Below, piece by piece: positions 1 to 38,082 of a stretch of DNA of 38,082 nucleotides. Numbering within the stretch: position 1 is the stretch's first letter; every line of letters starts with the position of its first letter. The stretch lies in the IMG/VR virus record IMGVR_UViG_3300042114_000016, positions 1 through 38,082 of that record, one strand, 5' to 3'. A program made the translations under genes and the position numbers. Source of the DNA: a virus. The notes below the pieces were generated by a model, which had not been told where the DNA came from, did not search any database, and worked only from the letters and a program-made list of their open reading frames with translations.

Positions 1-175
1 CTTCATCCTCCATTTTTTGATTACGCGCCGTATGACCTTTTTTATGAAGCCGAAGCCCCAAGATCATTAGGTTTTTCTTTTCGCTTAAGTACTGATGTAC
101 CGCCTGTGGTGTCACACCTAAATGATTAGCCAGATTTTCAATGTCTGACCATTTGAATTCACTTTGTTTTTTCAT
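1..175 (-). CDS. Small HTH protein, copy B (runs off window start)
   Basis: The ATG at 175 overlaps the stop of the hexapeptide gene (ATGA). The reading runs leftward off position 1. The complete version at 37745-37924 shows a 59-aa product. Residues 8-40 look like a helix-turn-helix (segments SDIENLANHLGV and TPQAVHQYLSEKK), the pattern of DNA-binding regulators that suit 'AVHQ' recognition helices, followed by a basic tail rich in Lys, Arg and His. Function is inferred as a small DNA-binding regulator. If the molecule is circular, this is the same gene as 37745-37924. A near-identical copy is at 36233-36412. Confidence 0.7.
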   Translation of the reverse strand, partial: MKKQSEFKWSDIENLANHLGVTPQAVHQYLSEKKNLMILGLRLHKKGHTARNQKMEDE

Positions 176-1020
176 TTTATGATCTCAGCCATTGAACAAA
201 TTTTATTAAATGCCTCTAGCCGTCTTTTGCCTTCTTCTGAATCTTTTATAAATTCACAATCATTGTTCCAAAAATCGTTATCCCATTCCTCTTTTGTTCT
301 AGTGAAGCAACCCATTTGAATAAACAATGTTCCTTCGAAACAATAAGCGGATGAATGATATTTATAAAAATTCATTAAGTGTACTATTATTGAAATTTTT
401 ACACCTGATTCTACTTTTGCTCTTGTCAAAATACTTGCATCATCTCCGATACTTGCACCATTTCCGATACTTGCACCATCTCCGATACTTGCACCATTTC
501 CGATACTTGCATCATTTCCGATACTTGCACCATTTCCGATACTTGCACCATTTCCGATACTTGCACCATCTCCGATACTTGCACGATTTCCGATATTTGC
601 ACCATCTCCGATATTTGCACCATCTCCGATATTTGCACGATTTCCTATACTTGTATCATTTCCGATACTTGCACCATCTCCGATACTTGCACCATATCCG
701 ATACTTGCATCATATTCGATACTTGCACCATATCCGATACTTGCACCATATCCGATACTTGCACGATTTCCGATACTTGCACGATTTCCGATACTTGCAC
801 CATATCCGATACTTGCATCATTTCCGATACTTGCACCATCTCCGATACTTGCACCATTTCCGATACTTGCACGATTTCCGATACTTGCACGATTTCCGAT
901 ACTTGCACGATTTCCGATACTTGCACGATTTCCGATACTTGCACCATATTTTTTAGCTTCTTCTCTAAGCTCAGAGATTGTTTCATACTCAAAACGCACT
1001 TCTAAAAACACAACTTTCAT
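172..1020 (-). CDS. Hexapeptide-repeat (left-handed beta-helix) protein, copy B
   Basis: A 282-aa protein. A short N-terminal region (about 26 residues, MKVVFLEVRF onward) is followed by 28 tandem hexapeptides of form A-S/N/T-I-G-N/D/Y-R/G/D, then a 90-residue C-terminal domain with several aromatics and three Cys. The I-G-x-x-A-x rhythm is that of the left-handed parallel beta-helix, with three hexapeptides per coil, so about nine coils. ATG 1020 is preferred over GTG 1029 because AAGGTG sits at good distance upstream. It lies between the ATPase gene and the HTH gene, to which it is coupled by ATGA. No transferase active-site region is visible. Function unknown; probably a structural or binding surface. 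A 297-aa paralogue lies at 36409-37302. Confidence 0.85.
   Translation of the reverse strand: MKVVFLEVRFEYETISELREEAKKYGASIGNRASIGNRASIGNRASIGNRASIGNGASIGDGASIGNDASIGYGASIGNRASIGNRASIGYGASIGYGASIEYDASIGYGASIGDGASIGNDTSIGNRANIGDGANIGDGANIGNRASIGDGASIGNGASIGNGASIGNDASIGNGASIGDGASIGNGASIGDDASILTRAKVESGVKISIIVHLMNFYKYHSSAYCFEGTLFIQMGCFTRTKEEWDNDFWNNDCEFIKDSEEGKRRLEAFNKICSMAEIIK
439..942 (-). repeat. 28 x 18-bp hexapeptide-coding repeats
   Basis: The tract has 28 in-frame 18-bp units with no frame-breaking unit. Ala1, Ile3 and Gly4 of each hexapeptide are almost invariant (one unit has Glu at position 4). Positions 2, 5 and 6 vary: S/N/T, N/D/Y and R/G/D. A block of five units (16-20) that includes TSIGNR and three ANIG units also occurs twice in the paralogue's tract. 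Confidence 0.95.
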
Positions 1021-1046
1021 CTTATTCACCTTTTTTGCTTTGATTT

Positions 1047-1107
1047 AGTAAGTTTATCTAACAAATACTTACATTATTATTAACATTTTTAAGTAAGTCT
1101 ATCTAAC
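1047..1107. promoter_or_regulatory. Paired 16-bp direct repeats upstream of the hexapeptide gene
   Basis: AGTAAGTTTATCTAAC at 1047-1062 and AGTAAGTCTATCTAAC at 1092-1107 (one mismatch) lie 45 bp apart in the AT-rich gap before the hexapeptide gene. The same pair is at 37329-37344 and 37374-37389 in the duplicate. On the minus strand a TTGTCA hexamer lies just upstream, but no convincing -10 is spaced from it. These could be operators; the binding protein is unknown. Confidence 0.45.
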
Positions 1108-1185
1108 TGACAAACAAACCAAACGGGCATTATCTAAAATCTCTTTCCGCCAAATTAGCGATTAAATTATTACTGTGAGCATATT

Positions 1186-2151
1186 TCATAGAGTGTACCC
1201 CATTTCTATTTTTGGCTCATACTTTATCTCTACTGCCATCGAATTAAATCCTCGATACCCTTGAGTTTGTCCGTATTGGTTCAATGATAGCTCAACTTTG
1301 AAAGTGCGTTCATCTTGTCTATTCTTTGTACATCGCAATATTCTTTTATGTTCATCTTTTTTGTCCATAATATAAAACCACATCATATCAGCATCATATT
1401 TTTGATCACCGCCATTTTTAAGAACCATTCTCCCATCTTTTATGGCTTCATCGCTCATCTGATTTATTAGAAAAATGATGATGTCTTTTTCTTGAGCCAA
1501 CTTAGATAACTTCGATGAAATTAATGACGTTTTTTGATGATCTGCTATTTCTTGATTTACTTCTATCTTCATCCGCGAGTCAATCGCGAAAAACTTAATC
1601 CCGTCACGTGCATAAAGTGTGATCTCCATGCAAAGCAATTCGAGTTCTCTTGAGTGAGAGTCTATTATTAGATTATCTCTTTGAATGTCATTTTTTAATT
1701 TGCGCTGAAGTCTGTGCCCTATTCTCTTTATTCCCATTTCAAAGTTGAAAAATACGCATTGAGAATAGCTAGAAATGTGTGAAAGAATATCAAGGATAAG
1801 CGTTGTTTTCCCCGTTCCACTTTCACCTGCAAACTGAATAAAAGTTCCCGTCTCTATCCCTCCTTTGATTCCCATACGTCTATCTTCATCGGTTGAAAGT
1901 TCTGCATCAATAGCATCAATTCCGATTGCATAGCGTGGTAAGTGTGGCATATTTTGAACCATTGTGATTAAGTCACCCGCTTTTATTCCGTTACGCTTCT
2001 CTTCTTGCTCGATCAAGTCTAGCATTTGTAGTTTCGTTTGATAAAGTTCTCGTTTGAGTTTTATAACCGCATCGTGGTCATCCATTCCCTCTGAGGTTTG
2101 AATTTGTTGAGTGATGGATCTTGTTTTTTGTTGCAGTTCACTAAATTTCAT
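1186..2151 (-). CDS. RecA/DnaB-type replicative ATPase (helicase C-terminal domain)
   Basis: A 321-aa P-loop ATPase. Residues 1-75 are helical and charged. Walker A is GESGTGKTT at 109-117. A Walker B-like strand (KFFAIDS) ends at Asp191, and a following strand (IIIFLINQMS) matches the RecA/DnaB core. The gene follows, with an 11-bp overlap, a separate gene for a DnaB N-terminal-like domain, so the two probably supply the halves of a replicative helicase or act as a helicase and its partner. A RadA/RepA-like ATPase is the alternative. Its last codons (MGYTL plus stop) lie inside the duplicated module and are also the end of the ERF remnant at 37468. Confidence 0.85.
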   Translation of the reverse strand: MKFSELQQKTRSITQQIQTSEGMDDHDAVIKLKRELYQTKLQMLDLIEQEEKRNGIKAGDLITMVQNMPHLPRYAIGIDAIDAELSTDEDRRMGIKGGIETGTFIQFAGESGTGKTTLILDILSHISSYSQCVFFNFEMGIKRIGHRLQRKLKNDIQRDNLIIDSHSRELELLCMEITLYARDGIKFFAIDSRMKIEVNQEIADHQKTSLISSKLSKLAQEKDIIIFLINQMSDEAIKDGRMVLKNGGDQKYDADMMWFYIMDKKDEHKRILRCTKNRQDERTFKVELSLNQYGQTQGYRGFNSMAVEIKYEPKIEMGYTL

Positions 2152-9544: not shown

Positions 9545-9869
9545 TTTTCATTTCCTCCGTGAGTCCTAATTTCTTGGCAATAACACGCTCCACAAGCAAT
9601 AAGCCTCGTGTCCCTTGGTGGGACGTTATCCCCACACAAACAGCGGTAAGCCATTCGTCAAAACCGCTGTATTTACAAAGGGCATACGTAACAACTCCGA
9701 TGAAGCCGCTAATAGTCACGTCTCCGATCCACTCGCTGAGGCTAAACCGCTGGATAACCCCTTCTTTTACTTTGCGCACCGTGTGAACCGTGCCACCCCA
9801 TAACGACAATACCAACACCCACATTATTGTTATAATTCCTACGTTTTCGGGGATGTTATTTTGTGGCAT
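9537..9869 (-). CDS. Phage holin (lambda S-like family)
   Basis: 110 aa with three likely membrane segments (around 10-28, 50-68 and 73-90) and a charged C-terminus ending in Lys and Gly. The IGDVTISGFIGVVTYALC and VCVGITSHQGTRGLL segments resemble class I phage holins. It forms inner-membrane holes and sits directly upstream of the endolysin gene. Its start overlaps the end of the tail-fibre gene. Confidence 0.7.
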   Translation of the reverse strand: MPQNNIPENVGIITIMWVLVLSLWGGTVHTVRKVKEGVIQRFSLSEWIGDVTISGFIGVVTYALCKYSGFDEWLTAVCVGITSHQGTRGLLLVERVIAKKLGLTEEMKNG

Positions 9870-11685
9870 TTTGCACCTCTACTTCCAAATGTTTGACCCT
9901 AGCAGATAATTCTTGCACGGCTTTAATCAGAGGTGCTATAAACTCATCGTATCCGATGGTCAATACATCTGTTCCACCATTTATACTGTGGTCTTGATAT
10001 CCGCCGAAATCTACTCCTAATTCATCCATTACGGCTTTAACCTCTTGTGCAATAACTCCCTGATGTTTGCGACGTTTTGCTCTTGAACCATCTTTGGGAA
10101 CAGCAACAAGGGAGGTTTGTGTGTATTCTTCTTTAGTGTATCTTTGGTTTTTTGAAGACTCTTCTAACTCTTGGTTGAACGCTTCATTAATAACCTCTCT
10201 CGTTAATGTTTCTTCAACCCTATCAAAGTAGTCATCTCGCATATCCCACTTGTACTCAACGGGGCGTATTCTATTGATGAATTCCAGCCCTAATGAGGTA
10301 TCCGCAATACTTGTCTTGTCTCTTGCATCGGAACGATTTTGCACCGTCCCGTAGACATACGTGGTAGTTGAGCTATTGCCTAGCTGAACTTGGTTGTTCC
10401 CCGATACTCTCGTATCATATCCTAGTCCTGCGCAGTTGCTATATGTGTCATTATTGGTTCCATCTTGCCGATATTGTAGTGCATTCGCACCGTTAGCTGT
10501 GTTGTAATTGCCTGTGGTGTTACCACGTAGTGCATTCACACCGCTAGCTGTGTTTTGAATGCCTGCGGTGTTAGTGGTCAGTGCATCCACACCGCTAGCT
10601 GTGTTTTGAATGCCTGTTGTGTTAGTTAACAGTGCACTCACACCGTTAGCTGTGTTGTAATTGCCTGTGGTGTTACCACGTAGCGCACCCACACCGTTAG
10701 CTGTGTTGTAATTGCCTGCGGTGTTAGTGGTCAGTGCATCCACACCGCTAGCTGTGTTGAGGGTGCCTGTGGTGTTACCACGTAGCGCACCCACACCGTT
10801 AGCTGTGTTGTAATTGCCTGCGGTGTTAGTGGTCAGTGCATCCACACCGCTAGCTGTGTTTTGAATGCCTGTTGTGTTAGTTAACAGTGCATTCGCACCG
10901 TTAGCTGTGTTGTAATTGCCTGTGGTGTTACCACGTAGTGCATTCACACCGCTAGCTGTGTTGTAATTGCCTGTGGTGTTATCACGTAGTGCATTCACAC
11001 CACTAGCTGTGTTGGAATATATATTTCCACCGCCCCTCCACAGCTCAACTCCATTGGCAATAACTTTACTAGCAACCACTACACCATTGTCGTCAATAGT
11101 CACCATGCTATCTTTAACCGCACCAGTTGCTCCATCAACTCTCGCTATCGAGTTGTTGACCAGCGTTACTCTTTTGATTAATGAGGCTTTGATATTAGCC
11201 CATGTCATTTTCTTCATAACAAACGAAGCGACACTATCTAAAAAACCAAACTCATCCGCATCGTCAGGGGTTGTTTTAGCCGTCGCAGCATGAACCGTTG
11301 ATGCAATATCATCGTGCAATACCCATCCGCTTACATTTGGCGCGTCCGTATTTGCTGGAACGGTGTTAAGATAGTTTTTGTCATCCGTAAATCGAACCAC
11401 AGCGTTAATAGCGTATGCGTAAGCTGTACCGCCGTTTGTTGTCGCGTCGATATAATCAGGGAAGCCATGGGTTTGGTACTGTTGCAATGCGCCCGTAACG
11501 TCGCTTAAAACATAGTTTAGCTTTTGTCGTTCAATGGCGCGTGCGAGCGGGTCGGTGCCTAATACGCGCTCATAATTGAGATTGTACCCTTCGGTATAGC
11601 TGACTGCCCCAGATACGTCTAACTCGTCGGGTACGGCTGTTTTATCACCGCTTGCAGCCCATAAAGTTTTAAACCATTTTGCCAT
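9856..11685 (-). CDS. Tail fibre with 17-residue repeats and S74 chaperone domain
   Basis: 609 aa. Residues 1-125 form the baseplate-attachment region, 126-220 a linker. Residues 225-394 are ten perfect-length 17-residue repeats of the NTASGVNALRGNTTGNY type, as in YadA/Hia-like head repeats that form trimeric beta-prisms. Residues 452-609 are an intramolecular chaperone / peptidase S74 domain, beginning SDARDKTSIADTSLG with the Ser452/Lys457 pair. S74 domains trimerise fibres and cut themselves off. The C-terminal part contains an inserted charged segment (about 485-530). Likely the host-recognition fibre. Confidence 0.8.
   Translation of the reverse strand: MAKWFKTLWAASGDKTAVPDELDVSGAVSYTEGYNLNYERVLGTDPLARAIERQKLNYVLSDVTGALQQYQTHGFPDYIDATTNGGTAYAYAINAVVRFTDDKNYLNTVPANTDAPNVSGWVLHDDIASTVHAATAKTTPDDADEFGFLDSVASFVMKKMTWANIKASLIKRVTLVNNSIARVDGATGAVKDSMVTIDDNGVVVASKVIANGVELWRGGGNIYSNTASGVNALRDNTTGNYNTASGVNALRGNTTGNYNTANGANALLTNTTGIQNTASGVDALTTNTAGNYNTANGVGALRGNTTGTLNTASGVDALTTNTAGNYNTANGVGALRGNTTGNYNTANGVSALLTNTTGIQNTASGVDALTTNTAGIQNTASGVNALRGNTTGNYNTANGANALQYRQDGTNNDTYSNCAGLGYDTRVSGNNQVQLGNSSTTTYVYGTVQNRSDARDKTSIADTSLGLEFINRIRPVEYKWDMRDDYFDRVEETLTREVINEAFNQELEESSKNQRYTKEEYTQTSLVAVPKDGSRAKRRKHQGVIAQEVKAVMDELGVDFGGYQDHSINGGTDVLTIGYDEFIAPLIKAVQELSARVKHLEVEVQNATK
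10504..11013 (-). repeat. Ten 51-bp repeats in the tail fibre gene
   Basis: Ten in-frame 51-bp units plus a partial eleventh. Asn1, Thr2, Ala3, Gly5, Ala8, Leu9, Asn12, Thr13 and Gly15 are nearly constant; residues 4, 6, 7, 10, 11, 14, 16 and 17 vary. Paired units recur in order (LRGNTTG type followed by LTTNTAG type), a higher-order 102-bp pattern that indicates past block duplication. Confidence 0.9.
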
Positions 11686-29706: not shown

Positions 29707-29770
29707 TTGTCATACCCCCCACTTGGTGATCTTGATCTGTATCATCAAGCCATGCTGTTAATGTTAGCAT
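29687..29770 (-). CDS. 27-aa ORF before the terminase
   Basis: ATG 29770 with AAGGA six bases upstream and a stop inside the start of the terminase small-subunit gene. It encodes an acidic peptide (MLTLTAWLDDTDQDHQVGGM plus seven residues). It could be a true small ORF or a leftover of a gene cut by the HNH insertion. Low certainty. Confidence 0.3.
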   Translation of the reverse strand: MLTLTAWLDDTDQDHQVGGMTSGKTNE

Positions 29771-29801
29771 TTAATTTCCTTACTATTTAGATACATTGTG
29801 G

Positions 29802-29807
29802 TATAAT
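29802..29807 (+). promoter_or_regulatory. Extended -10 promoter for the HNH gene
   Basis: The plus strand reads TGG-TATAAT 32 bp before the HNH start, in very AT-rich DNA. An own promoter is needed because the gene lies against the surrounding leftward operon. Confidence 0.5.
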
Positions 29808-29838
29808 ATAAATATAAAAATTTATTTAGGATTTTATT

Positions 29839-30498
29839 ATGGAAAATGGATTTTGTGAATGTGGTTGTGGTAACAATGTAAGTGCCGGTAGACGATTTAT
29901 TAGTGGTCATAATAGGGTTGGGAAAAGTAAACCAACTGTAGATATTAAATGTGCTGAATGCGAAAATATTTTTAGCGTTATTCCGTCTATGAAAAATAGA
30001 GTTTATTGTTCTAATGAATGCCGAGATAATCACAGACGAAAAAGAACTGGCGAAAAACACCCTCTCTATAATAGAACGCATATAAATTGTGGGGTATGTA
30101 ATAAAGAGATAACTATTACCCCTAGCCTTTTGAAAAGAAAACGAAAAATATATTGTTCTAAAGAATGTGGTCATATTGCTCAGGCAAATGCTCTTAGAGG
30201 AAAAGTAAAAGTAACAAATAGAAGTGGCAAGCGTTCTGCAAGAGTTAGAGACGGAAATAAATGTGTTATGTGTGGGTTTGAGCACGCTGTTGCTGTTCAT
30301 CATATTGTTTCTGTAAAAGATGGCGGGAGCAATGAGCTTACTAATCTTGTAACGCTTTGCCCAAATCACCACTACATGGCTCACATGAACATGATACCAA
30401 TTGATGATCTTAAAAAATACGCTTCCGAGTTTAGTTTTCATAATGGTGTTGAATTTATAACTTCCTCTTTGGGAAAAGGTCCAAATTTTAGAGGATGA
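29839..30498 (+). CDS. HNH homing endonuclease with zinc-binding fingers
   Basis: 219 aa on the strand opposite to all neighbours. The N-terminus has CECGCGN and several Cys pairs (CAEC, CSNEC, CGVC, CSKEC) forming two or three zinc knuckles. The C-terminal HNH domain spans about 140-180: CVMCGFEHAVAVHHIVSVKD, then NELTNLVTLCPNHH. TTTAGGATTTT lies upstream. It abuts, on its 3' side, the first 26 codons of a ParB-like gene that stops there, so it has most likely inserted by homing. AT-rich base use unlike its neighbours supports transfer. Confidence 0.85.
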   Translation: MENGFCECGCGNNVSAGRRFISGHNRVGKSKPTVDIKCAECENIFSVIPSMKNRVYCSNECRDNHRRKRTGEKHPLYNRTHINCGVCNKEITITPSLLKRKRKIYCSKECGHIAQANALRGKVKVTNRSGKRSARVRDGNKCVMCGFEHAVAVHHIVSVKDGGSNELTNLVTLCPNHHYMAHMNMIPIDDLKKYASEFSFHNGVEFITSSLGKGPNFRG

Positions 30499-30501
30499 TT
30501 T

Positions 30502-30579
30502 ATCGTCACTGTGAGTTCTGCTATTTCGTGCGTATGGCACCAACTCTTTGACTGATTTATAGACTATTTCTTGCTTCAT
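30502..30579 (-). pseudogene. ParB-like/DNA-methylase N-terminal remnant
   Basis: The 26 codons from ATG 30579 (EIVYKSVKELVPYARNSRTH then SDD) match the opening of ParB-type nuclease domains, often fused to adenine methylases, where the text runs PYARNSRTHSD followed by EQVAQIA. Just after that point the reading enters the antisense of the HNH gene. The rest of the gene is absent. The start is still coupled by ATGA to the upstream 110-aa gene, so the break is recent or tolerated. Confidence 0.7.
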
Positions 30580-33128: not shown

Positions 33129-33584
33129 CTAAAACGGAATTTCGTCTTCGTTAATATCAATCTCTGGCATAGTATTTTGAGGCATTGGCTTCGTTTCTTG
33201 TCTCTCATACGTCGGCTTAGGCATTTTATACGACTGTTTTTCTTGATCGCCGCTGTTGTCTTGTTTGTTGTCAAGCATCTTCATTGTTTCAACGATTACG
33301 ATATGCTTTGAGCGTTTTTGCCCATCTTTATCGACCCATTGATCAAGTTTTAGCCGTCCAGTTATAAAAACTTTTGAGCCTTTACGCAAATATTCGTTCG
33401 CGATTTCCGCGCTGCGACCAAAAAAAGTTAAGTCGATAAACATAACATCTTCGCGTTTCTCGTCGTTCACCTTGAACTTGTGAGATGTTGCAACGCATGT
33501 GCTTGCAATTGCACTTCCTGATTGAGCGTATTTAAGTTCAATGTCCCTTGTTAAATTTCCAAGCAGTGTGATTTGATTAAACAT
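33129..33584 (-). CDS. ssb: Single-stranded DNA-binding protein
   Basis: 151 aa. OB fold in the first 105 residues (FNQITLLGNLTRDIELKYAQ, then FFGRSAEIANEYLRKGSKVF) and a disordered Pro/Gln-rich linker ending in the acidic tip DEIPF, the conserved partner-binding end of SSB. Overlaps RecT by 8 bp; works with RecT and the exonuclease. Confidence 0.95.
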   Translation of the reverse strand: MFNQITLLGNLTRDIELKYAQSGSAIASTCVATSHKFKVNDEKREDVMFIDLTFFGRSAEIANEYLRKGSKVFITGRLKLDQWVDKDGQKRSKHIVIVETMKMLDNKQDNSGDQEKQSYKMPKPTYERQETKPMPQNTMPEIDINEDEIPF

Positions 33585-34428
33585 TAATTTCCGCCTCTTT
33601 TTCAGCGTAAAACGATTCTAAGATTTCTTCACATTTTCCTTGCCCCAAATCTAGAAACCCATCAACCGTTTCGTTGGTGATATTAGCCCACTTTGTGAAG
33701 TTGACTTTCTCATCGTCCGTCATACCGCGACCGTTAAAAAACTTTTCAAGTCTTGACAGTTCAGGCTCGACGACTTCCGCTTCTTTGATTGGTTCGACTT
33801 TGGGTGTTACATTTGGGGCTTTCATCATTGCGTTTAGATCAACTTGCGGAGCTGATGGGATAGCCTCAACGGTTGTTACTTTTCCAATGTCTCCCGCTTC
33901 TTCACTCGTTTGTAATCCAAACATTACTTGTGGGTAAAACTCTTTGATAAAGAATGATTGAGCGCGTTTGCGTAGCATCAATTCGGGCATAGTCACCCAC
34001 TTACTCCCCTTCTTATCAATCCATCCCTCATCTTTTGCCATCTTCATAGTTACGCTCATGCCAACGTTATCTTCGCCAGTTTCAGCATCGATAGCAGAAC
34101 ACTTACACGTTTGCAGGTCGTCTGAAATAATCGTTTTAAGTGAGCCACGTATCATCCCACTTTGATTAAGTCGTGCCACTAAAAATGATGTTGAAAATGA
34201 TGGTCTCCCATAAATTATATAAATACTTTGTGCTACTTCCATCACGCTTATGTTCATGCGGTTTGCAAGGTCATAAACAATCACTGCGCTTGCGATGTCG
34301 TTTTTCAATGTATCGGGGAAAAATGCACTTTTTGCAAGTGCGCCAGCTCTACGTTGTTCTAACTCGAAGCTTTTTACTTCAAGTTCAAGGGCTTGTGTTC
34401 GTGTCTCAATTGTTGTCAATGCGCTCAT
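33577..34428 (-). CDS. RecT-family single-strand annealing protein
   Basis: 283 aa. The RecT core is visible: AQSIYIIYGRPSFSTSFLVA, a GRGSLKT-like turn, then GWIDKKGSKWVTMPELMLRK and AQSFFIKEFYPQVMFGLQT. The C-terminal 80 residues are linker and a small helical end. It anneals single strands made by the adjacent exonuclease. It is the intact recombinase of this genome; a broken ERF lies at 37468-37748. Confidence 0.8.
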   Translation of the reverse strand: MSALTTIETRTQALELEVKSFELEQRRAGALAKSAFFPDTLKNDIASAVIVYDLANRMNISVMEVAQSIYIIYGRPSFSTSFLVARLNQSGMIRGSLKTIISDDLQTCKCSAIDAETGEDNVGMSVTMKMAKDEGWIDKKGSKWVTMPELMLRKRAQSFFIKEFYPQVMFGLQTSEEAGDIGKVTTVEAIPSAPQVDLNAMMKAPNVTPKVEPIKEAEVVEPELSRLEKFFNGRGMTDDEKVNFTKWANITNETVDGFLDLGQGKCEEILESFYAEKEAEINV

Positions 34429-34437
34429 ATTTTTTCC

Positions 34438-35256
34438 TTAATTATTTTGATAATGTGCATACGCTGGAAGCACAATGGTTTGAACGAGTTGATCAGTATC
34501 TTCTTTGTTCCGATACATCGGTTTGTCGAATTCATCGATACGCTTGTAAATCTCGATGGCTTGTTTGACTTTCTCGCGTCCTAGTTCCAAATCAGCGTCA
34601 CAGAATTCATATACTGCCACCATGAACGGAAATTCAGGCTCAACACATACCAGGACGAATTTATCAACTCGTTTACCGATTGAGCGTAATGTGTCAATGT
34701 AGTGTGCAGCTGAAATGTGATAACCAAAATTGGCGCAAGCCTTCGCGAATCCATCCTTTGAAGCATCAATCGTCTTTTTAATATCAACTACTAATCCAAA
34801 CTCTTCGATAAAATAATCAGGCTTGCATTTCACCGCGATACCGTCAATTTCTCCGAAAAATTCTTTTTCAGCGATACCGTTTTGAAAAAAGCATTTAGCG
34901 TCACTTTGGATGATCGCATCCGCACAACTTCGGGCGATAAGATAATCATCGTTTTTGAGGACTGTTTTGCCACCGCTAAGGCGTTCAAACTCTTCTTTGA
35001 TAGCTTTGCCCTCTTTCGTCCGTCCGTCGTAAATAGGGGCGATTGCGTAATCCTCATCAAATAGGTGGGGCTCTAGCACCATGCAGTGAATAGCCGAACC
35101 CATCACCATTGCGGGCGATTGTTCTTTTTTCACACCCATTTTATATTTATATGGGTTTTTAAGAATGACTTTTAGGTTTGTTGAACCTAACGCTGGGTGG
35201 GCGTGGTATTGCTCATTTGTCATTGTCGTATTTTCTTCAAAATTAAGATCTAACAT
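34438..35256 (-). CDS. RecE-like PD-(D/E)XK exonuclease (DUF3799)
   Basis: 272 aa. NTTMTNEQYHAHPALGSTNL and MGSAIHCMVLEP match the N-terminus of exodeoxyribonuclease VIII-like/DUF3799 proteins. EIDGIAVKCKPDYFIEEFGL then VVDIKKT supplies the catalytic D..D-x-K set, and ACANFGYHISAAHYID is the later conserved motif. It resects DNA ends for RecT. Coupled to the DUF1351 C-terminal piece by a one-base overlap. Confidence 0.85.
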   Translation of the reverse strand: MLDLNFEENTTMTNEQYHAHPALGSTNLKVILKNPYKYKMGVKKEQSPAMVMGSAIHCMVLEPHLFDEDYAIAPIYDGRTKEGKAIKEEFERLSGGKTVLKNDDYLIARSCADAIIQSDAKCFFQNGIAEKEFFGEIDGIAVKCKPDYFIEEFGLVVDIKKTIDASKDGFAKACANFGYHISAAHYIDTLRSIGKRVDKFVLVCVEPEFPFMVAVYEFCDADLELGREKVKQAIEIYKRIDEFDKPMYRNKEDTDQLVQTIVLPAYAHYQNN

Positions 35257-35573: not shown

Positions 35574-36236
35574 TTAAGATTTTGCAAGGGCTTCTTGCTT
35601 TTCGAGTTCTGCTCTTGCAAGTAGTTCGATTTCACGTTGTCGGGCTTTTTCTTCCGCTTCGATTCGCGCTTTATCTGCAATCTCTCGATCACGTTTCGCT
35701 TTCTCTTCGGCTTCAAGTCGGGCTTTTAGAATCTCATTTTCTACCGCTTGAATACGTGCATCGACTGCATCGGTTGTTTTCTTTGTAAGCGTGTATCCAG
35801 TTTTATTTGTTGATACCGCTGATAGCATAACTAAATCTTTAGTGCTAATTACGTCGGTACTTAAAAATCCTTTTTCAAAACAAGCATCGCTTGCATAATC
35901 AAAGATTAATTCTTCAATTTCAAACAGCTTTGTAGCCTCAAACTTTGCCACTTGATCTGCTATCTTCGCCCGTCCGTCATCATACATTTTTTCGATCTCT
36001 TTTTGTTGAGATTTGAAATCTGTGATTGGTTCTGAAATCGAATCAATGAACTTTTTACACGTTGTTGAAAACTCTTTTTTGTCTTTGTTGAATGTTGCCA
36101 TCAACTCTTTTGCTTCGTTCAATCTATCCTCTACGACTACAACATCATACTTTGCGATTGTCTCAGCGATTGACGCTTTTACGTCTGCCATGTTTGATAC
36201 TAAATCAAATTTGTGTGTTACTTCTAAATCTTTCAT
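35574..36236 (-). CDS. DUF1351 protein, N-terminal part
   Basis: 220 aa. EVTHKFDLVSNMADVKASIA, then a TIAKYDVVVVEDRLNEAKEL segment and TFNKDKKEFSTTCKKFID match the DUF1351 family of phage recombination operons, which lie beside RecT/ERF and exonuclease genes. A coiled coil fills 150-215. It ends at TAA inside the coil, while the same frame goes on in 35256-35573. Full family members are about 300 residues, so this is truncated. It starts by ATGA overlap with HTH copy A. Confidence 0.75.
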   Translation of the reverse strand: MKDLEVTHKFDLVSNMADVKASIAETIAKYDVVVVEDRLNEAKELMATFNKDKKEFSTTCKKFIDSISEPITDFKSQQKEIEKMYDDGRAKIADQVAKFEATKLFEIEELIFDYASDACFEKGFLSTDVISTKDLVMLSAVSTNKTGYTLTKKTTDAVDARIQAVENEILKARLEAEEKAKRDREIADKARIEAEEKARQREIELLARAELEKQEALAKS

Positions 36237-36412
36237 ACTTCATCCTCCATTTTTTGATTACGCGCCGTATGACCTTTTTTATGAAGCCGAAGCCCCAAGA
36301 TCATTAGGTTTTTCTTTTCGCTTAAGTACTGATGTACCGCCTGTGGTGTCACACCTAAATGATTAGCCAGATTTTCAATGTCTGACCATTTGAATTCACT
36401 TTGTTTTTTCAT
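36233..36412 (-). CDS. Small HTH protein, copy A
   Basis: 59 aa, identical to the copy at 37745-37924 except the last residue (Val for Gly), which is changed because the duplication edge lies in the last codon. Same HTH (NLANHLGVTPQAVHQYLSEK). ATGA overlaps link it to the hexapeptide gene upstream and DUF1351 downstream. Confidence 0.75.
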   Translation of the reverse strand: MKKQSEFKWSDIENLANHLGVTPQAVHQYLSEKKNLMILGLRLHKKGHTARNQKMEDEV

Positions 36413-37302
36413 TTTATGATCTCAGCCATTGAACAAATTTTATTAAATGCCTCTAGCCGTCTTTTGCCTTCTTCTGAATCTTTTATAAATTCACAATCAT
36501 TGTTCCAAAAATCGTTATCCCATTCCTCTTTTGTTCTAGTGAAGCAACCCATTTGAATAAACAATGTTCCCTCGAAACAATAAGCTGATGAATGATATTT
36601 ATAAAAATTCATTAAGTGTACTATTATTGAAATTTTTACACCTGATTCTACTTTTGCTCTTGTCAAAATACTTGCACCATCTCCGATACTTGCACCATCT
36701 CCGATACTTGCACCATCTCCGATACTTGCACCATCTCCGATATTTGCACGATTTCCTATACTTGCACGATTTCCGATATTTGCACCATCTCCGATATTTG
36801 CACCATCTCCGATATTTGCACGATTTCCTATACTTGTATCATTTCCTATACTTGCACGATTTCCGATATTTGCACGATTTCCGATATTTGCATCATCTCC
36901 GATATTTGCACGATTTCCTATACTTGCATCATCTCCTATACTTGCACGATTTCCGATACTTGCACCATCTCCGATATTTGCACGATTTCCTATACTTGCA
37001 CGATTTCCGATATTTGCACCATCTCCGATATTTGCACCATCTCCGATATTTGCACGATTTCCTATACTTGTATCATTTCCTATACTTGCATCATTTCCTA
37101 TACTTGCACGATTTCCGATACTTGCTTCATCTCCTATACTTGCACGATTTCCGATACTTGCATCATCTCCTATACTTGCACGATTTCCGATACTTGCATC
37201 ATTTCCTATACTTGCACGATATTTTTTAGCTTCCGCTCTAAGCTCCAAGATTGTTTCATACTCAAAACGTACTTTGAGTAACCCTAAAAACACAACTTTC
37301 AT
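36409..37302 (-). CDS. Hexapeptide-repeat (left-handed beta-helix) protein, copy A
   Basis: 297 aa. The N-terminal region is like copy B with a three-residue insertion (FLGLLKVRF against FLEVRF) and a few substitutions; the C-terminal 88 residues are identical. Between them lie 30 hexapeptides instead of 28, in a different order, with the seven-unit block ASIGND-TSIGNR onward present twice (units 8-14 and 21-27). ATG 37302 is chosen as in copy B. Predicted as a ten-coil left-handed beta-helix. Function unknown. Confidence 0.85.
   Translation of the reverse strand: MKVVFLGLLKVRFEYETILELRAEAKKYRASIGNDASIGNRASIGDDASIGNRASIGDEASIGNRASIGNDASIGNDTSIGNRANIGDGANIGDGANIGNRASIGNRANIGDGASIGNRASIGDDASIGNRANIGDDANIGNRANIGNRASIGNDTSIGNRANIGDGANIGDGANIGNRASIGNRANIGDGASIGDGASIGDGASIGDGASILTRAKVESGVKISIIVHLMNFYKYHSSAYCFEGTLFIQMGCFTRTKEEWDNDFWNNDCEFIKDSEEGKRRLEAFNKICSMAEIIK
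36676..37215 (-). repeat. 30 x 18-bp hexapeptide-coding repeats
   Basis: Thirty in-frame units. Compared with copy B, ANIG units and alternating NR/DD or NR/DG end-residues are more frequent, Tyr at position 5 is absent, and Glu appears once at position 6. The duplicated seven-unit block shows that whole 126-bp blocks have been copied within the tract. Confidence 0.95.
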
Positions 37303-37467
37303 CTTATTCACCTTTTTTGCTTTGATTTAGTAAGTTTATCTAACAAATACTTACATTATTATTAACATTTTTAAGTAAGTCTATCTAACTGACAAACAAA
37401 CCAAACGGGCATTATCTAAAATCTCTTTCCGCCAAATTAGCGATTAAATTATTACTGTGAGCATATT

Positions 37468-37748
37468 TCATAGAGTGTACCCCATCATGTTGATGAACAC
37501 AATCTCAAACATAGCCTCGAATCGTATTTTAGGATTACCGCTTTTTGTAGTTCCTTCGACTGATACGCCTTTCCCAACCTGAGACGGTGCGATAATAATC
37601 CCCTGCTCTACGAAATGAGACCGCGTAACGCTTGTAACCTGATCATGTGATACCGCTTAAATGAGTTATTTCCAAACCCTACACTCGTATCTTTTTTAAC
37701 ATAAACTACGCTCTCGCGAACCTTGTTTATTTTTTCATAAATGTTCAT
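37468..37748 (-). pseudogene. ERF recombinase remnant, frameshifted and truncated
   Basis: From ATG 37748 the frame reads MNIYEKINKVRESVVYVKKD, then GFGNNSF, an ERF-family start, but hits TAG after 46 codons. Moving to the next frame after codon 30 restores AVSHDQVTSVTRSHFVEQG and PSQVGKGVSVEGTTKSGNP, the ERF core. One A is missing from TTTAAAGCGG (now TTTAAGCGG, near 37657). The restored frame then runs into the duplicated module and ends with MGYTL, about 93 residues in all against roughly 200 for the family. It has lost its C-terminal half and cannot be active. Confidence 0.8.
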
Positions 37749-37924
37749 CCTTCATCCTCCATTTTTTGATTACGCGCCGTATGACCTTTTTTATGAAGCC
37801 GAAGCCCCAAGATCATTAGGTTTTTCTTTTCGCTTAAGTACTGATGTACCGCCTGTGGTGTCACACCTAAATGATTAGCCAGATTTTCAATGTCTGACCA
37901 TTTGAATTCACTTTGTTTTTTCAT
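37745..37924 (-). CDS. Small HTH protein, complete copy at the window end
   Basis: 59 aa, the full form of the gene cut at position 1. Starts at 37924 (ATGA with the partial hexapeptide gene) and ends in an ATGA overlap with the ERF remnant. In a circular genome it is the same gene as 1-175. Confidence 0.7.
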   Translation of the reverse strand: MKKQSEFKWSDIENLANHLGVTPQAVHQYLSEKKNLMILGLRLHKKGHTARNQKMEDEG

Positions 37925-38082
37925 TTTATGATCTCAGCCATTGAACAAATTTTATTAAATGCCTCTAGCCGTCTTTTGCCTTCTTCTGAATCTTTTATAA
38001 ATTCACAATCATTGTTCCAAAAATCGTTATCCCATTCCTCTTTTGTTCTAGTGAAGCAACCCATTTGAATAAACAATGTTCC
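37750..38082. repeat. Terminal 333-bp repeat, equal to 1-333 and 36238-36570
   Basis: All three stretches are identical. The contig starts where the left contexts of the two internal copies diverge (a before 36238, c before 37750) and ends where copies A and B diverge (c at 36571, t at 334). It therefore behaves as a repeat edge of an assembly graph or as the overlap of a circular molecule. Confidence 0.95.
37921..38082 (-). CDS. Hexapeptide gene 3' end, cut by window end
   Basis: The same bases as 172-333, coding the last 53 residues of the C-terminal domain. It runs off the window. It is probably copy B read again through the end overlap, not a third gene. Confidence 0.6.
   Translation of the reverse strand, partial: GTLFIQMGCFTRTKEEWDNDFWNNDCEFIKDSEEGKRRLEAFNKICSMAEIIK

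What the first reader, a model, noticed from the sequence alone, without database searches (positions are those of the whole stretch)
172..1020. Hexapeptide protein whose variation is confined to fixed positions of each repeat
In both copies (172-1020 and 36409-37302) Ala1, Ile3 and Gly4 are nearly invariant, while positions 2, 5 and 6 take a small set of residues (S/N/T; N/D/Y; R/G/D/E) in different order. In a left-handed beta-helix the invariant residues build the core and the others form ladders on the faces. The gene thus seems to hold a constant scaffold with a re-writable charged/polar surface, and in-frame 18-bp units permit change without breaking the frame. Known: hexapeptide units form this fold. 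Inferred: the surface is a recognition or mimicry face under diversifying change.
Basis: partly seen in the sequence, partly recalled or inferred. Interest (0 to 1): 0.75.

Follow-up and report, generated by a model that had tools for sequence, protein, structure and literature searches.

The report
Phage beta-helix proteins with rewritable repeats
Two neighbouring phage genes encode rod-shaped proteins built from about 30 near-identical six-residue units; across many unrelated phages the core of each unit stays fixed while two or three surface residues keep being changed, which points to a protein surface selected to change quickly, although what it binds is unknown.

Summary
The window (a 38-kb phage contig that closes on itself) carries two tandem paralogues, 172-1020 and 36409-37302 (minus strand), with 28 and 30 hexads A-S-I-G-x-x. 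I analysed 42 homologous arrays (727 units). Positions 5-6 vary in every array; core positions hardly do. Four-fold silent sites barely vary (0 of 116 in the window), so this is not just a drifting repeat with a constrained core: amino-acid change exceeds silent change in 39 of 42 arrays. Arg at position 6 is reached by different single-base routes set by each array's silent background (CGY or AGR), which argues for independent protein-level selection. In Leptospira phage-plasmids the N-cap DNA is identical while arrays differ in length and most units. The gene sits with recombination/replication genes; many members end in a conserved 'IGC..W' domain. The left-handed beta-helix rests on sequence families; the AlphaFold2 model is confident but its handedness is doubtful. 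Ordered 'faces' were not found and net charge is near zero, so DNA mimicry is unlikely. A binding/decoy function is inference. New variant of a known kind (hexapeptide proteins, phrog_5353); unit-number alleles of one prophage hexapeptide gene were already published.

The parts
172..1020 (-). hexapeptide-array gene, copy 1 (282 aa; alternative GTG start at 1029)
   Evidence: Pfam Hexapep E 7.7e-30; phrog_5353 E 5.7e-55
943..1020 (-). N-terminal cap of copy 1 (MKVVFLEVRFEYETISELREEAKKYG), similar to caps of homologues
439..942 (-). 28 hexads of 18 bp, consensus GCA AGT ATC GGA NAT SRT = A-S-I-G-[NDY]-[GRD]
172..438 (-). last hexad-like turn plus C-terminal domain with IQMGC..T.EEW, a divergent 'IGC..W' domain
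   Evidence: hhalign E 7e-4, probability only 27%
36409..37302 (-). hexapeptide-array gene, copy 2 (297 aa; alternative GTG start at 37311)
36676..37215 (-). 30 hexads of copy 2, different order and composition; edit distance 24 DNA units to copy 1
1..1203 (.). duplicated block, copy 1 (91% identical to 36238-37485; 400 bp downstream of the arrays 99.5% identical)
36238..37485 (.). duplicated block, copy 2
37750..38082 (.). 333-bp exact repeat of 1-333: the contig closes on itself inside the C-terminal part of copy 1
34438..35256 (-). PDDEXK exonuclease-like (DUF3799), neighbour
33129..33584 (-). single-strand binding protein, neighbour
33577..34428 (-). weak RecT match (E 0.0034, below cut-off), neighbour
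35574..36236 (-). DUF1351 protein, neighbour
1186..2151 (-). DnaB-like helicase, neighbour

Best explanation
Each gene encodes a phage early-region protein made of an N-terminal cap, a beta-helical rod of hexapeptide units (most likely left-handed) and, in most members, a conserved C-terminal domain. The rod is encoded by a coding minisatellite of 18-bp units. Unequal recombination or slippage adds, removes and shuffles units without breaking the frame (inferred from array comparisons). Point changes are kept almost only where they alter the exposed residues 5 and 6 (in some lineages also 2), converging on D/N/Y and G/R/D/E, while core residues and silent sites stay homogeneous. I infer that the exposed surface is under diversifying selection because it binds a fast-changing partner, most likely a host or competing-phage macromolecule met early in infection (for example as inhibitor or decoy). 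Shown: array architecture, position-specific variation, excess of amino-acid over silent change, convergent codon routes, allele-level turnover between conserved caps, association with recombination/replication genes. Inferred: binding role, partner, early expression, left-handedness.
For: Hexapep and phrog_5353 matches; phmmer to LpxD, GlmU and LpxA chains down to E 1.5e-12. 42 arrays: nucleotide diversity at the first two bases of codons 5-6 is .378 versus .077 at four-fold silent sites; 39/42 arrays in that direction, 28/42 with zero silent diversity. 29 different silent signatures. Arg6 shares its third base with the array's own Gly6 codon in 177/181 units; the acid is D in pyrimidine-ending arrays (65:2) and E in purine-ending ones (29:3). 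In pyrimidine arrays CGY (Arg, transversion) 90 versus AGY (Ser, transition) 7; in purine arrays AGR (Arg, transition) 65 versus CGR 8; by array p=5e-5 and p=.002, by distinct silent signature p=.014 and p=.015. Leptospira alleles: N-cap DNA 96/96 identical in six alleles, C-domain 180/180 identical in three, arrays of 10-21 readable units that differ by 9-20 unit edits. Recurrent tandem paralogues: window, L011, L051, and five genes in L. mayottensis p2. Neighbours include YqaJ/DUF3799 nucleases, RecT, ERF, Mgm101, methylases, helicases.
Against: No binding partner, phenotype or expression data. Unit order looks random, which a specific extended interface would not predict. Arrays within one lineage sampled twice are identical (L037/L038, L046/L047), so turnover is not instantaneous. 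Units multiply by duplication, so diversity counts are not independent events, and standard selection tests do not strictly apply; collapsed by silent signature the codon-route test is only p about .015. Two older-looking loci (L011, L051) have silent diversity about as high as amino-acid diversity. The window's own C-terminal domain matches the conserved one only weakly.
Confidence: 0.5

Rival explanations
1. Structural heterogeneity, not recognition: a long helix of identical coils would mis-register or aggregate, so selection only favours that neighbouring units differ and stay polar. The rod is a spacer or scaffold and residue identity is unimportant.
For: Random-looking order and near-neutral net charge; mostly polar, charged and turn-forming residues at 5-6; the same C-terminal domain type seems attached to other repeat types.
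Against: Stacked units (lag 3) and neighbours (lag 1) are not significantly less alike than in shuffled arrays, as avoidance of mis-registration would predict. It does not obviously explain the near-complete array turnover between alleles with identical caps.
Confidence: 0.25
2. Neutral coding minisatellite: slippage plus purifying selection on the core, with free drift at exposed sites.
For: 18-bp tandem units, block duplications, contigs that end inside arrays, invariant core.
Against: Silent sites should drift as fast as exposed sites but are homogeneous in 28/42 arrays without strong codon bias in the window phage. Arg arises by a transversion where the transition would give Ser. A tail-fibre repeat in the same genome has similar diversity at third and at first/second bases.
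Confidence: 0.12
3. Directed mutagenesis of the array, such as a diversity-generating retroelement or another targeted mutator.
For: Changes fall on fixed nucleotides of each unit (codon 5 base 1, codon 6 bases 1-2).
Against: No reverse transcriptase in the window or in 10 homologue records (some records may be fragments). Changes are not adenine-specific and the base change depends on which one yields Arg.
Confidence: 0.05
4. Enzyme: a hexapeptide acyl- or acetyltransferase, as some relatives are annotated.
For: Same repeat family; annotations 'acetyltransferase' and 'acyl-ACP--UDP-N-acetylglucosamine O-acyltransferase' in public records.
Against: Scores far below NCBIfam equivalog cut-offs (best 103 versus 207 bits); no His in either array; hypervariable surface.
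Confidence: 0.04

Closest known systems
phrog_5353 (phage family, unknown function)
   Same: E 5.7e-55 and 2e-54 over repeats and part of the C-terminus; a Leptospira member matches over nearly its whole length
   Different: no function is given, so it names the family and explains nothing
Hexapeptide left-handed beta-helix enzymes (LpxA, LpxD, GlmU; Pfam PF00132)
   Same: hexad pattern; variable positions are the x positions of the known pattern
   Different: no His in the array, far below equivalog cut-offs, near-perfect DNA repeats, different end domains
'Ca. Liberibacter asiaticus' prophage gene CLIBASIA_05650 (PMC3296602)
   Same: phage-associated gene made mostly of imperfect 18-bp / six-residue repeats; natural alleles with 18 or 22 hexapeptides
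   Different: hexads led by Val; relation of its end domains to this family not tested (record not in the collection); no position-specific analysis seen in the passages read
Pentapeptide-repeat proteins (MfpA, QnrB, AlbG type)
   Same: beta-helical rod; a pentapeptide gene with an IGC..W-like C-terminus lies next to a hexapeptide gene on Leptospira pLiSL34
   Different: five-residue, right-handed repeats; the DNA mimicry of those proteins is not supported here by charge
TAL effector repeats with repeat-variable diresidues
   Same: near-identical DNA repeats with variation confined to two adjacent residues per unit (analogy only, from general knowledge)
   Different: other fold, unit length and origin; no evidence of a recognition code
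Diversity-generating retroelement target proteins
   Same: constant scaffold with variable surface
   Different: no reverse transcriptase or adenine-specific change found

Membership tests
Pfam Hexapep PF00132 | score above the curated gathering cut-off | tested here: met
   101.8 and 110.3 bits versus 27
Left-handed beta-helix fold | left-handed triangular coil of three hexads | tested here: inconclusive
   beta-solenoid predicted with pLDDT above 90 over most of the array, but right-handed solenoids superpose at 2.5-3 A while LpxD fits at 11.8 A rmsd (Z 20); AlphaFold2 is reported to give confident unrealistic solenoids for repeats (PMC11795689)
phrog_5353 | significant profile match beyond the repeats | tested here: met
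   E 5.7e-55 / 2e-54; best stretch covers profile 63-224 of 256, so the last part of the C-terminus is not covered
Conserved IGC..W C-terminal domain (phrog_32789 type) | profile match of the window protein's C-terminus | tested here: inconclusive
   no PHROG match for the isolated C-terminus; hhalign E 7e-4 over 24 columns, probability 27%
LpxA/LpxD/GlmU-type transferases | equivalog score | tested here: not met
   LpxD model 103 bits versus cut-off 207; LpxA 72 versus 231
LpxA/LpxD/GlmU-type transferases | catalytic His within the helix | tested here: not met
   no His in either array
Diversity-generating retroelement | reverse transcriptase nearby | tested here: not met
   RVT_1 absent in the window and in 10 homologue records
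Known anti-phage defence families (PADLOC) | match to a PADLOC model | tested here: not met
   no match for seven members at E 0.01
DNA mimic proteins | strongly acidic surface | tested here: not met
   net charge per hexad mostly between -0.5 and +0.3; window -0.27 and -0.18

The most novel reading that the evidence does not exclude
A modular recognition rod: exposed residue pairs on a beta-helix act as a rewritable code, recombined and selected per phage, functionally comparable to repeat-variable diresidues and without a reverse transcriptase. Tandem copies that lack the C-terminal domain might serve as sequence donors.
Probability: 0.12. Interest if true: 0.92.

Novelty: new variant of a known kind. 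Interest (0 to 1): 0.62.

Why it matters
If right, many phages of different hosts carry an early gene whose surface is diversified by ordinary repeat recombination plus selection, a counterpart to retroelement-driven diversification. It would mark an unrecognised arms-race interface in the recombination/replication region and make it testable: the alleles are natural array swaps between conserved, in places identical, caps. It would also warn annotators, since such genes are deposited as acyltransferases, and assemblers, since contigs break inside the arrays.

Tried and rejected
Antisense ORFs across both arrays (327-956, 36564-37229, plus strand): open because 18 is a multiple of three; no support as genes. 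Period-three ordering of units or charges: not found (opposite charges at lag 3 z 2.6 among 48 tests, treated as noise). DNA mimicry by charge: not supported. Retroelement: no RT. Search with the isolated C-terminus in IMG/VR and phages: nothing. Alignment A2 was too diverse for a scan. The second AlphaFold job gave a good C-terminal domain (pLDDT about 90, four strands and two helices) but a poor array; no solved chain by sequence; in the viral structure library the best hits were two unnamed phage proteins. Foldseek of the array model gave no match at E 0.001 or better. The two C-terminal profile groups A7 and A8 did not align significantly, so their common origin rests on shared motifs only. 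The record tried for a Liberibacter prophage was not held. Papers: nothing on this family beyond the Liberibacter case in the searches made.

Full report
What is there. The window is a 38,082-base virus record. It holds two genes on the minus strand, 172-1020 and 36409-37302, each with a short N-terminal cap, 28 or 30 hexads and a C-terminal part. The contig's first and last 333 bases are identical, and block 1-1203 recurs at 36238-37485. Read as a circle, the two genes are therefore tandem neighbours between a DnaB-like helicase gene (1186-2151) and a group with DUF1351, a DUF3799 PDDEXK nuclease, a weak RecT match and SSB. The 400 bases downstream of the arrays are 99.5% identical between the copies, yet the arrays need 24 edits of 28-30 DNA units (shuffled mean 26.5). 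They share a four-unit run, and copy 2 contains an internal block duplication.

Variation in the window. Of 58 units, Ala1 is kept in 55, Ile3 in 58 and Gly4 in 57; position 5 is N, D or Y and position 6 G, R, D or (once) E. Silent sites are also almost frozen: the third bases of the Ala1 and Gly4 codons never vary (0/116), and only Ile3 has an ATC/ATA polymorphism. The phage's other genes use all four Ala and Gly codons, so codon bias is not the reason. Within one array the fixed core could therefore be mere homogenisation by unit duplication. Homologues were needed.

Homologues. Scans of genome and viral contigs with alignment A4 returned 16 and 32 loci, some of them ordinary hexapeptide genes or duplicates. 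Phage and plasmid collections added Aeromonas, gut and Leptospira members. In 44 parsed arrays the mean within-array amino-acid heterozygosity for positions 1 to 6 is .20.33.08.14.66 and .65. Units occur in 29 silent signatures among 42 arrays, so the core is kept across many DNA backgrounds. That is protein-level constraint and fits the classical hexapeptide pattern, whose x positions are the variable ones here (pattern from general knowledge).

Selection rather than drift. Diversity per site is .378 at the first two bases of codons 5-6 against .077 at four-fold silent sites; 39 of 42 arrays agree and 28 have no silent diversity. L011 and L051 are the exceptions. The residue set recurs by different codon routes. 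Arg6 has the third base of the array's own Gly6 codon in 177 of 181 units, and the acid is D in pyrimidine-ending arrays and E in purine-ending ones (94 of 99 units). In pyrimidine-ending arrays Arg comes by the transversion GGY to CGY (90 units) while the transition to Ser is rare (7). In purine-ending arrays Arg comes by the transition GGR to AGR (65) and rarely as CGR (8). By array the contrasts have p=5e-5 and p=.002; by distinct silent signature p=.014 and p=.015. A base-specific mutator would not choose the base by its amino-acid result. The caveat is that units multiply by duplication, so counts are not independent. As a control, a 51-bp tail-fibre repeat in the same genome has about equal diversity at third and at first/second bases, but it is only one array.

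Allele-level test. Six alleles on Leptospira phage-plasmids or phage contigs have identical DNA over the 96 bases coding for the N-cap. Three share 180 identical bases of the C-terminal domain. Their arrays run to 10-21 readable units (some are cut off by the contig's end and one, L069, is interrupted by a stop) and differ by 9-20 unit edits, mostly at positions 2, 5 and 6, with Ala always GCA. L049 and L005/L056 show the same: about 88-92% identical flanks, different arrays. Turnover is not instantaneous: L037/L038 and L046/L047 have identical arrays. Tandem paralogues recur in L011, L051 and, with five genes, in L. mayottensis p2, where three lack the C-terminal domain.

Architecture. Many members end in a domain with the motif GS.H..SYWG...I.IGC...I..W (alignment A7; profile phrog_32789). 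The window proteins carry a divergent version (IQMGC..T.EEW; hhalign E 7e-4, probability 27%). A Vibrio-group phage protein joins a clear version to an FHGGEF-type repeat, and a pentapeptide gene beside the Leptospira pLiSL34 hexapeptide gene ends similarly (E 3e-4, probability 41%). I read this as a cap domain used with more than one type of beta-helix; the pentapeptide link is suggestive only. A second group, motif GP.GSR...GC (A8), may be related but did not align significantly.

Structure. AlphaFold2 gives P0001 a solenoid with block means of pLDDT above 90 over most of the array. Foldseek finds no strong match, and the second aligner superposes right-handed solenoids at 2.5-3 A but LpxD at 11.8 A rmsd despite Z 20. 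The model may have the wrong hand; AlphaFold2 is reported to predict confident but unrealistic solenoids for repeat sequences (PMC11795689). The left-handed fold is therefore inferred from sequence.

Function. Neighbours of homologues include many recombination, replication and methylation genes: YqaJ, DUF3799, RecT, ERF, Mgm101, DNA methylases, helicases, ligase. There is no PADLOC match. Equivalog scores and the lack of array His argue against an acyltransferase. Net charge near zero argues against DNA mimicry. I favour a variable binding or decoy surface against a changing partner, at about 0.5 for the whole statement; the array architecture and position-specific diversification alone I would put near 0.85. 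The main rival is that diversity only protects folding of a repetitive rod. The absence of lag-1 and lag-3 avoidance speaks against its simplest form.

Known and new. Hexapeptide proteins, phrog_5353 and unit-number alleles in one Liberibacter prophage gene (18 or 22 hexapeptides, PMC3296602) are known. I found no report, within the papers searched, of position-specific diversification across phages, of convergent codon routes or of the shared cap.

Noticed in passing
window 10476-11018 (in ORF 9856-11685, -): Tail-fibre-like protein with about 10.6 copies of a 17-residue (51-bp) repeat; used as a control array.
   Followed up: partly
window 37486-37749: Spacer between the tandem copies holds a frame-disrupted ORF fragment (begins MNIYEKINKVRESVVYVKKDTSVGFGNNSF) that looks like the start of an ERF-type annealing protein; Pfam gave no match to the pieces.
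   Followed up: partly
window 29764-30579 (-) and 29839-30498 (+): The minus-strand ORF begins like a ParB-type protein and then loses resemblance; the plus-strand ORF inside it looks like an HNH endonuclease, perhaps an inserted homing endonuclease (by eye only).
   Followed up: no
L042, L043, L044, L055, L056/L061, L060, L064: Viral contigs begin or end inside the hexapeptide array; IMGVR_UViG_3300000271_000004 does so at both ends. The arrays seem to break short-read assemblies.
   Followed up: partly
L067:3108-6038: Five tandem hexapeptide genes on Leptospira mayottensis p2, three without the C-terminal domain.
   Followed up: partly
L066:4648-5229: Pentapeptide-repeat gene directly after a hexapeptide gene, with an IGC..W-like C-terminus.
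   Followed up: partly
L069:3001-3783: The array reading frame of this Leptospira allele is interrupted by a stop inside the array.
   Followed up: no
L007:2917-3477 and L065:3998-4648: Members are annotated as acetyltransferase or acyl-ACP--UDP-N-acetylglucosamine O-acyltransferase, probably through repeat similarity only.
   Followed up: partly
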